A stretch of DNA of 41,689 bases from Verrucomicrobiota bacterium (GTDB lineage: Bacteria > Verrucomicrobiota > Verrucomicrobiia > Chthoniobacterales > Terrimicrobiaceae), in NCBI GenBank assembly GCA_026398275.1, contig JAPLTF010000071.1, forward strand, positions 1 to 41,689, in the 5' to 3' direction. Within the stretch, counting starts at the first letter, position 1. The number at the start of each line of letters is the position of its first letter. The translations under genes were made by a program, and so were the position numbers. Below are positions 23,976-26,492 of this stretch, one piece after another. The notes beneath the pieces are model-generated. The model did not search any database and had not been told where the DNA came from. It saw only the letters and a list, made by a program, of their open reading frames with translations.

Positions 23976-24049
23976 GCAGCCGTAGCTCAATTGGATAGAG
24001 CATCTGACTACGGATCAGAAGGTTGAAAGTTCGAGTCTTTCCGGCTGCA
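23976..24049 (+). tRNA. tRNA-Arg (anticodon ACG)
   Basis: A 74-nt cloverleaf. The acceptor stem GCAGCCG pairs with CGGCTGC and is followed by discriminator A. The D-arm is AGCTCAATTGGATAGAGC; the anticodon stem TCTGA/TCAGA encloses loop CTACGGA with anticodon ACG; the T-arm has loop TTCGAGT. CCA is not encoded. Decodes CGU (and CGC/CGA after A34 deamination). DNA just downstream is decayed, as is common at tRNA integration sites. Confidence 0.95.
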
Positions 24050-24059
24050 CTATCTCTCA

Positions 24060-24439
24060 CAACGAGTTACAACTTCCTCTGGGCACTGACTGGGATTCTC
24101 AGTGCCCAACGAGTGCCCAAAACTGGCCAAACTCACCGGCCTACGCGGGCAATGGGAAACTTCGGCTTGGCCGTTGCCCAGATCCGATCATACTTCCTCA
24201 CCTGTGTCGAAGTCAGGAAAGTAACGAAGCCCCCGGCCAAGTTGCCGGTCCCATGCGGGTGCCGGGGGAGTTGCTCAAAGTGGATCGTTGGAAAAACTGG
24301 ACCTTTGGGTTCAACGCGCTCGGTGCAATACGGGGCGATATGGCCCTGGCGAACGTGTATCTTTTCGCAGTCCGTTTGGCACGGATTCACCATGCTCGCG
24401 CCAGCATGTCATCCGATGACAATCCCGAGGTCACGGCCG
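24060..24439. other. Degenerate DNA between tRNA-Arg and a glycosidase remnant
   Basis: No intact gene is visible. A perfect 9-bp inverted repeat, GGGCACTGA (24081-24089) and TCAGTGCCC (24099-24107), lies about 30 bases after the tRNA, followed by a further GTGCCC copy. Short frames here lack recognisable motifs. They may include the disrupted 5' part of the downstream glycosidase. Confidence 0.5.
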
Positions 24440-25144
24440 ATTTCGGAGAAGATCCTGGATGGGCACAAAGATTCTCCCGCGATTTTGGGTTGGGAATTCG
24501 GGAACGAATACGTGCTCGAGGCCGACCTCCCGGCCGAACAACAGGCGGGCCTCGCGCGATGGTTCCAGCCTGAATTCGGAATGCCGTCAAAACCGGGACC
24601 GAACGACCACCTGACCAGCGCGATGATACGGACAGCCTACAGCGAATTCGCCAAAGCCGTCCGCAAGATCGACGCCGGGCGGCCGATTTTCACGGGTGAT
24701 GCCACCCCTCGCTCATCGGCTGCTGCGCTCGAAAAGACGGGGACCTGGGGTTCCGACACTGCGGATGAATGGATCGCCCAACTCATCAAGAACAACCCCG
24801 ACCCGGTGGATACGCTCTCCATCCACTTTTATCCATTCCATAAAGAAGCCGGAGTCGGCCTCGCCAATAAGCCGTTCGAAGAAACGCTGGACGCCTGCAT
24901 CGAGGCCTCCAAGCGATCCGGAAAACCATTATGGATCGGAGAGTTTGCGGGAGCGGAAACTTCCGATGTGGCACTCCGGCGCAAACAGTTCCAAAAGATC
25001 CTCGACCTCCTCGTGGCCCGTCAGGTCCAGCTTGCCGCCGTGTGGGTCTTCGATTACCCCCAACAACCTTTCATGAACATCGACATCGGAACGGACAATG
25101 AATTCATGCTGGAAGCCATCGCCGAGGCAAACCGGCAGAGGTAG
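24440..25144 (+). pseudogene. 5'-truncated GH5-like glycoside hydrolase (cellulase/mannanase type)
   Basis: The readable part (about 234 codons) is the second half of a GH5-type TIM barrel: DSPAILGWEFGNEY carries the acid/base Glu (codon at 24506), VDTLSIHFYPF the usual His/Tyr strand, and LWIGEFAG the nucleophile Glu (codon at 24941), followed by VWVFDYPQQ. The first barrel strands and any signal peptide are missing. The frame continues upstream to 24023 but with no protein-like sequence and it runs into the tRNA. It is therefore a 5'-truncated remnant. Confidence 0.7.
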
Positions 25145-25661: not shown

Positions 25662-25744
25662 GCGGGAAATGATGCCGCAATCCCCCGCCCGCGCGCAACA
25701 CATCAATCACTCCTCCCCCGTCCCGCCCCTCCCGAGCTTCGTCT

Positions 25745-26176
25745 TCACGCTCGCCGCCACCGGCACCACGGGGAGAAAAAGCGGAAACTGGAAAGCTGAA
25801 GGAATTCAAAATTCAGCATTCCCAATTTAAAATTGATCCAGTGGCGGGCGGTGTGAAATTCCTTGGTCGGCTTGAAACCCGCCTTCGCACTGAGGGCGCC
25901 CCCGGCATTGTGTCGGGCGAACAGGGCTTGGAGTTCGCCGATGATCTCCTCGGCAGCGGATTCCGGGATCAGGTCGCCCTTGATTTTCAACTCGAACGAC
26001 TGCTTGAAGAACGCGGCTCCTTTTTCGCCGGTCACGCGCAGGATGGCGGCATCATCGGTCGTGCCCCGGTAGGAATTCGAGAACCCGACGCGCACGAGCT
26101 CGATCGATAGCCATCGCCGCAGAGAAAAATGGTGCGGTCCCAGCAGACACCCCTCCCCAAAGAAAAGTGTCTGCAT
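25745..26176 (-). pseudogene. Unidentified protein remnant downstream of the three-way-junction palindrome
   Basis: The frame has protein-like sequence from about 26110 down to 25845: IELVRVGFSNSYRGTTDD, VTGEKGAAFFKQSFELKIKG, LIPESAAEEIIGELQALFAR and KPTKEFHTARHW. Both ends look wrong. The first ~20 codons lie within a palindrome, and the last ~30 run into an AT-rich stretch near 25800-25835. I do not recognise the family. It is probably a gene fragment bounded by insertions or deletions. Confidence 0.4.
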
Positions 26177-26220
26177 ATCGCTTCACCCCCATGAAGCGAG
26201 GGACCGCACCAAAGTTTTCT
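26123..26220. repeat. 98-bp composite palindrome folding as a three-way junction
   Basis: The outer arms are TGGTGCGGTCCC (26130-26141) and GGGACCGCACCA (26200-26211), perfect over 12 bp. They extend outward by AGAAAA (26123-26128) with TTTTCT (26215-26220) across a small bulge. Inside are two perfect hairpins: GCAGACAC/GTGTCTGC (26143-26150 and 26167-26174, 16-base loop) and CGCTTCA/TGAAGCG (26179-26185 and 26192-26198, 6-base loop). The single strands at the junction are only one to four bases. The geometry points to a structured RNA or a hairpin-ended mobile element. The class is unknown to me. Confidence 0.8.
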
Positions 26221-26267
26221 GAAAAATCGGCCAATCGGATCCGCCGACATTCTCCCCGTCGAGGTCA

Positions 26268-26492
26268 TCATCGACACACAAAGCCACTGCGGTCGAAGAC
26301 GATGACGCTCAAGTCGTCCGGCGCGAGTTGCGCGTCGAGTTCGAGAACGGCCGCACCCGATGGGTTGCGGAGCGCGAGTTTTCCCTCCGGCGCTGGCTGG
26401 AGGGTCAGGCTTTGCTGCTGGATGCCGATAAATTTCTCAAGCTGACGAAAGATCATTGCGCGGGCGGCGGGGTAAGTGAAGACTTTGAACAT
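26268..26492 (-). CDS. Hypothetical protein fragment
   Basis: A 74-residue frame starting MFKVFTYPAARAMIFRQLEK with plausible protein composition (QPAPEGKLALRNPSG, LSVIVFDRSGF). It ends abruptly about 50 bases before the three-way-junction palindrome. It may be the 5' part of the gene whose remnant lies on the other side, or a separate small gene. No family is recognised. About 230 bases upstream to gmhA show nothing convincing. Confidence 0.35.
   Translation of the reverse strand: MFKVFTYPAARAMIFRQLEKFIGIQQQSLTLQPAPEGKLALRNPSGAAVLELDAQLAPDDLSVIVFDRSGFVCR

What the first reader, a model, noticed from the sequence alone, without database searches (positions are those of the whole stretch)
26123..26220. 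Compact three-way-junction palindrome of unknown class
Seen: 12 bp of perfect outer stem extended by 6 bp, enclosing two perfect hairpins (8 and 7 bp) with almost no unpaired junction bases, about 98 bases in all. It sits in decayed DNA between two protein remnants. This T-shaped fold recalls hairpin-ended replicons or single-strand transposons, or a structured RNA. None of the named repeat types I know matches it.
Basis: seen in the sequence. Interest (0 to 1): 0.7.

Follow-up and report, generated by a model that had tools for sequence, protein, structure and literature searches.

The report
Repeated T-shaped palindrome, probably branched terminator
The 98-base T-shaped fold is real. It is one of four known copies of a small repeated element in two closely related lake bacteria (Verrucomicrobiaceae), and most likely acts as a branched transcription-stop or RNA-end structure carried around by dispersed repeats: a modest new variant of a familiar kind of bacterial palindrome.

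Summary
Confirmed: window 26123-26220 is a perfect three-way junction (12-bp outer stem, two 8-bp hairpins). Folded with short flanks it gives -61.5 kcal/mol (plus) and -67.5 (minus), and no shuffle matched it. It is not unique. This genome has a second, half-deleted copy, and one sister-species MAG has two full copies. I found it nowhere else: 388 related genomes, 84,980 GTDB species, viral contigs, phages and plasmids. All five changes at paired positions among the three full copies keep pairing when read on the minus strand (one fully compensatory, four G-U), against 4.6% expected for random transitions. The minus strand also ends in a conserved TTTTT, and every copy lies 3' of an ORF in the same direction, once right after a nagB stop codon. 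Three copies are followed by a 260-bp dispersed repeat; the window copy keeps only the linking spacer and then switches to another repeat. Best reading: a branched terminator or 3'-end structure spread as part of a modular dispersed repeat. The main rival is a non-autonomous single-strand mobile element. REP/REPIN membership was tested and not met (no GTAG tag, not high copy, no match in the examined RAYT loci). Transcription and termination are untested here.

The parts
26123..26220 (-). Three-way-junction element (core as reported); the strand of interest is minus
   Evidence: copies
26130..26141 (.). Outer stem arm (12 bp, pairs with 26200-26211)
   Evidence: all pairs kept in the 3 full copies
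26200..26211 (.). Outer stem partner arm; contains GGGACCGC
26178..26199 (.). Hairpin A (8 bp, loop CCCCCA on plus / TGGGGG on minus); carries the compensatory G-C / G-U / A-U change
26143..26174 (.). Hairpin B (8 bp; 14 bp with G-U pairs when the minus strand is folded as RNA)
26125..26129 (-). Conserved T-tract directly 3' of the outer stem on the minus strand (CCATTTTTCT), as in an intrinsic terminator
   Evidence: present in 4 of 4 copies
26215..26219 (-). Conserved A-tract 5' of the outer stem on the minus strand (GAAAAC), pairs with the T-tract
   Evidence: 3 of 3 full copies
26098..26121 (-). Possible remnant of the spacer that in the sister genome links the junction to the 260-bp repeat (TGCGGCGATGGCTATCGATCGAGC; compare TGCGGCGTGGTTATAAAGCTCGAGC)
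   Evidence: read; short match with gaps, so suggestive
25705..26100 (-). Neighbouring dispersed repeat: fragment of a gene (VRVGFSNSYRG...GRGGTGEE) that recurs as fragments across the genome
26286..26477 (-). C-terminal remnant of a glycoside-hydrolase-like gene, upstream of the junction in the same direction; its frame ends at a stop at 26268-26270

Best explanation
A small dispersed palindromic element (about 100-125 bp) that, when the DNA is transcribed towards lower window coordinates, folds into a T-shaped RNA: an A-tract, a 12-bp stem closing a tight three-way junction with two hairpins, then a U-tract. It most likely works as a branched intrinsic terminator or 3'-end stabiliser for whatever gene lies upstream. 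It has been copied around the genome as the 5' module of a longer dispersed repeat (junction + spacer + 260-bp module). The window copy has lost the 260-bp module and now sits in decayed DNA, possibly without a live gene to serve. Shown: the structure, the copies, pair-preserving changes polarised to one strand, the conserved T-tract, position 3' of ORFs, and presence after one nagB copy but not after its relatives. Inferred: transcription, termination, and the means of spread.
For: Four copies in two species of one genus. All five changes at paired positions keep pairing on the minus strand; five random transitions at paired positions would do so 4.6% of the time. The minus-sense RNA is 9-13 kcal/mol more stable than the plus sense in each of the three full copies. 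TTTTT follows the stem in 4 of 4 copies. All four lie 3' of an ORF in the same direction: next to the stop codon of nagB in G001:C71, at the stop of the ORF in G001:C41, 75 bp after a long ORF in G000:C16, about 50 bp after the remnant in the window. The nagB region is similar over about 2.2 kb to G000:C111 and G003:C68, and over 1.6 kb to the paralogue G001:C163, none of which has the element after nagB.
Against: Only four copies, so same-strand placement alone has a 1 in 16 chance (1 in 8 if direction is arbitrary). No transcript data. The terminator scan cannot model branched stems, so it neither supports nor refutes. The T-tract can pair with the A-tract, which is not ideal for release. 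Three of the four copies share one flanking module, so placements are not fully independent. The shuffle control on three sequences does not show covariation by itself (324 of 500 shuffles equal it). Two of the upstream ORFs are truncated or remnant genes.
Confidence: 0.45

Rival explanations
1. Structured end of a non-autonomous single-strand mobile element (HUH type: like IS200/IS605-derived PATEs or REPINs). The junction is one end and the palindrome GATGTAAAGTTGGGCCTCAACTTTACATC at the far side of the 260-bp module is the other; a Y1 or other transposase recognises the folded single strand.
For: Composite arrangement in 3 of 4 copies, with palindromic structures towards both sides; variable 5' truncation of the 260-bp module with a fixed palindromic 3' region; no obvious target-site duplication; Y1_Tnp genes present in both genomes; strand polarity of G-T pairs fits ssDNA recognition as well.
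Against: Only four copies and none found beside a transposase; the element's sequence is not found next to the Y1_Tnp loci examined; the T-tract and the position directly after stop codons are unexplained; exact borders differ between copies.
Confidence: 0.27
2. Diverged REP doublet (REPIN/BIME) of the Verrucomicrobia GTAG/GTGG type: its core GCGGTCCCTCGC equals the REP stem-loop core of two other genomes of the order, where inverted doublets also enclose spacers with hairpins.
For: CM hit in G060 (34.8 bits, E 5.7e-6 per genome). G060 carries GTGG-ATGGCGC-GGTCCCTC-GCGCCAT and G044 carries GTAG-GGACGGC-GGTCCCTC-GCCGTCC as single units and inverted doublets. The left half here reads TGGTGC-GGTCCCTC-GCTTCA.
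Against: No GTAG/GTGG tag; two copies per genome at most, instead of many; no such repeat next to the Y1_Tnp loci examined; the core match is 12 bases and was picked from a search over 388 genomes; the inverted-pair pattern is not enriched over its reversed control.
Confidence: 0.12
3. A trans-acting or regulatory structured non-coding RNA (own promoter, own terminator).
For: Compact, conserved fold with conserved loops (TGGGGG); compensatory change.
Against: No Rfam match at any threshold; no sigma-70-like promoter found on the minus strand around it; starts directly at a stop codon in G001:C71; very narrow distribution.
Confidence: 0.1
4. Functionless debris: a chance-strong palindrome duplicated with other dispersed repeats in a repeat-rich genome.
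For: The genome holds many decayed, truncated dispersed repeats around it; one copy is half deleted.
Against: All paired-site changes preserve pairing and are polarised to one strand, though the number of changes is small.
Confidence: 0.06

Closest known systems
ERIC-type intergenic palindromes of Enterobacteriaceae (from memory, not tested)
   Same: About 100-130 bp, imperfect palindrome with branched fold, intergenic, probably transcribed, dispersed.
   Different: No sequence comparison was made; here the fold is a tight perfect three-way junction with a T-tract and belongs to a longer composite repeat; only two copies per genome.
REPINs / REP doublets with RAYT transposases (PMC3116915, PMC3733652; GTAG repeats reported in Opitutus terrae)
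   Same: Inverted arms around a structured spacer; shared core GCGGTCCCTCGC with REPs of two other genomes of the order.
   Different: No GTAG/GTGG tag, not high copy, no match in the examined RAYT loci.
Intrinsic (rho-independent) terminators
   Same: GC-rich stem directly followed by T5-T6, close after stop codons, A-tract on the other side.
   Different: A branched stem of about 80 nt enclosing two hairpins instead of a single hairpin with a short loop; occurs as a dispersed repeat.
Palindrome-associated elements mobilised by IS200/IS605 TnpA (from memory)
   Same: Structured, non-symmetric ends, no clear target duplication.
   Different: No linked transposase and no matching autonomous element found.

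Membership tests
REP / REPIN | GTAG (or GTGG) tetranucleotide next to the palindrome | tested here: not met
   Flanks are CTTTGG / CCATTTTT in the copies
REP / REPIN | High copy number within the genome | tested here: not met
   CM search of the own genome up to E = 10: 2 matches, one of them partial
REP / REPIN | Copies flank a RAYT (Y1_Tnp) gene | tested here: not met
   Y1_Tnp genes exist, but the element has only trivial matches in the loci fetched around them; not all Y1_Tnp genes had loci
REP / REPIN | Inverted arms able to form one long hairpin with the spacer | tested here: met
Intrinsic terminator | Stable GC-rich stem directly followed by a T-tract | tested here: met
   12-bp stem + TTTTT in the three full copies; the partial copy keeps the right arm and the T-tract
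Intrinsic terminator | Lies 3' of genes in the direction of transcription | tested here: met
   4 of 4 copies lie 3' of a same-direction ORF, two of them truncated or remnant genes; small number
Intrinsic terminator | Causes transcript ends | not testable with these tools
   needs 3'-end mapping or a reporter
Non-autonomous mobile element (MITE or HUH-mobilised) | Occupied and empty sites | tested here: inconclusive
   Present after nagB in G001:C71, absent at the related G000:C111, G003:C68 and paralogue G001:C163; the contig ends soon after, so no precise empty site
Non-autonomous mobile element (MITE or HUH-mobilised) | Target-site duplication (MITE) | tested here: inconclusive
   no clear duplication by eye in the alignments; borders uncertain
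Any Rfam family | Match to a covariance model | tested here: not met
   no hit at E up to 10 for 26000-26350
Hairpin-ended replicon | Lies at the end of a linear replicon with replication genes | tested here: not met
   the copies lie among ordinary genes inside contigs; the window was not searched systematically for replication genes

The most novel reading that the evidence does not exclude
A new kind of miniature mobile DNA in Verrucomicrobia: a composite of roughly 400-460 bp with a three-way-junction left end and a palindromic 11-7-11 right end, moved as a single strand and leaving 5'-truncated copies, whose left end doubles as a terminator insulating the insertion.
Probability: 0.15. Interest if true: 0.55.

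Novelty: new variant of a known kind. Interest (0 to 1): 0.3.

Why it matters
If the terminator reading is right, it shows a branched stem used as a 3'-end signal and spread as a repeat, in a phylum with few experimental models. If the mobile reading is right, it adds a structured-end composite repeat outside the REP class. Either way it gives a small, testable sequence family for a lineage whose small repeats are little described.

Tried and rejected
Rfam (gathering and permissive): nothing at the element. Viral contigs with four patterns (two for the junction, two for the 260-bp module): none. Phages and plasmids by distant blastn, junction and 260-bp module: none. CM over 388 relatives: the only weak extra hit with a plausible relation is the REP doublet in G060; hits in G141 and G068 are unconvincing. 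Inverted-pair pattern GCGGTCCC..GGGACCGC: 22 genomes, not more than the reversed control; the informative hits are palindromic doublets in G044, G060 and G317. Y1_Tnp loci: no such palindrome beside them. Reading the flanking 260-bp module as the terminal repeat of a large transposon (two inverted copies 41 kb apart in G041): no transposase recognised beside the copies from the ORF lists, which were not scanned against a family library, so left open. Pfam on the two flanking remnants: nothing above cut-off. An E. coli region call was of no use.

Full report
OBSERVATION. The window is one contig (G000:C24) of a 4.66-Mb draft genome. At 26123-26220 the sequence is as described: a perfect 12-bp outer stem, two 8-bp hairpins, and one plus three unpaired junction bases. 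The plus strand with short flanks folds at -61.5 kcal/mol, z -11.2, no shuffle as good. The minus strand is better still, -67.5 as RNA, because a run of G-U pairs lengthens hairpin B to 14 bp. As ssDNA it gives z -9.2. Folded exactly (102 nt, minus, -61.6), it is at least as stable as the best of 4,894 sliding 102-nt windows across the 41.7 kb (-61.1).

COPIES. A second copy lies in the same genome (C16:5993-6067, 95%), lacking the left arm. The sister-species genome G001 has two full copies, C71:14385-14481 (99%) and C41:13918-14016 (90%). A covariance model built from the three full copies finds only these in 388 relatives with high scores, and two in the own genome even at E = 10. Nothing in GTDB outside that MAG, viral contigs, phages or plasmids; those scans need exact patterns or similar DNA, so distant relatives could be missed.

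STRUCTURE CONSERVATION AND STRAND. Among the three full copies all 99 pair cells are standard pairs on the minus strand, with one compensatory series G-C / G-U / A-U in hairpin A and otherwise only G-U changes. The column shuffle has no power with three sequences (324 of 500 equal). An independent estimate is that five random transitions at paired positions all keep pairing in 4.6% of trials. On the plus strand the G-U states would be A-C mismatches, and the plus-sense RNA is 9-13 kcal/mol weaker in each copy. So the minus strand is the likely functional strand; this fits RNA or a recognised single DNA strand.

CONTEXT. On that strand every copy reads: ORF, then junction, then TTTTT. In G001:C71 the element starts at the stop codon of nagB. 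About 2.2 kb before it match G000:C111 (85%) and G003:C68 (80%), and 1.6 kb match the paralogue C163 (87%); none of these has the element after nagB. In G001:C41 the upstream ORF stops inside the left flank TTTCTGAAAAC. In G000:C16 a 742-codon ORF ends 75 bp before the partial copy. In the window the upstream frame is the C-terminal remnant of a glycoside-hydrolase-like protein (naming from its look and a longer frame in G011, 86% identical in aa; no family search of the long frame was run). It stops about 50 bp before the junction.

COMPOSITE REPEAT. In three of four copies the junction is followed, after a short spacer, by a 260-bp module with 8 listed matches in G000 besides short pieces, 3 in G001 and 2 diverged in G041. 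The module has a constant palindromic 3' region (GATGTAAAGTT-GGGCCTC-AACTTTACATC) and different 5' truncations in different copies. The window copy keeps about 24 bp resembling the spacer and then passes into another dispersed repeat, 25705-26100, fragments of which occur in many places in this genome. The junction therefore travels, or was duplicated, as part of modular dispersed repeats.

WHAT IT IS. The best-supported reading is a branched, T-shaped terminator-like or 3'-end structure (about 45%), copied with a dispersed composite repeat. The strand polarity, conserved T-tract, A-tract and positions support it; transcription has not been shown. The main rival is the structured end of a non-autonomous mobile element acting as single-stranded DNA (about 27%); the two are not mutually exclusive. 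A relation to REPs is hinted at by the shared core GCGGTCCCTCGC, which in G060 and G044 is the stem-loop core of GTGG- or GTAG-tagged REPs that also occur as inverted doublets. GTAG repeats and GTGG variants are published for Opitutus terrae (PMC3733652). But tag, copy number and RAYT linkage were tested and not met, so it is not filed as a REPIN. REPINs are defined in PMC3116915.

LIMITS. Four copies from draft genomes; one contig ends soon after the element. Borders of the element are uncertain by about 10 bp on each side. Resemblance to ERIC and to IS200/IS605-mobilised elements is from memory and was not tested by sequence.

VERDICT. Real, repeated, structurally conserved and lineage-restricted; an unusual shape for a familiar kind of small intergenic palindrome. 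Interest 0.3.

Noticed in passing
L003 2566-2845; L005 1636-1900; L007 (minus) and further copies on G000 C57, C23, C49, C6, C102, G001 C70, G041 C9: A 260-bp dispersed repeat with a constant 3' palindrome (11-7-11, like a tyrosine-recombinase core site) and variable 5' truncations, followed by at least two different extension modules; several copies lie at contig ends; nature unknown.
   Followed up: partly
window 25705-26100: Fragment of a gene (VRVGFSNSYRGTTDDAAILR...SVKTKLGRGGTGEE) that recurs as truncated fragments in many places in this genome; relatives G007 and G014 have longer frames.
   Followed up: partly
L078-L097 (G060), L098-L113 (G044): REP families with GGTCCCTC loops and GTGG/GTAG tags, as single units and inverted doublets with hairpin-containing spacers.
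   Followed up: partly
G041 C9:4486-4597 and 45288-45381 (L010, L013): Two inverted, diverged copies of the 260-bp module 41 kb apart on one contig; could be chance or the ends of a large element.
   Followed up: partly
window 23976-24049: A tRNA gene (Rfam tRNA, 71 bits) at the 5' side of the ORF 24023-25144.
   Followed up: no
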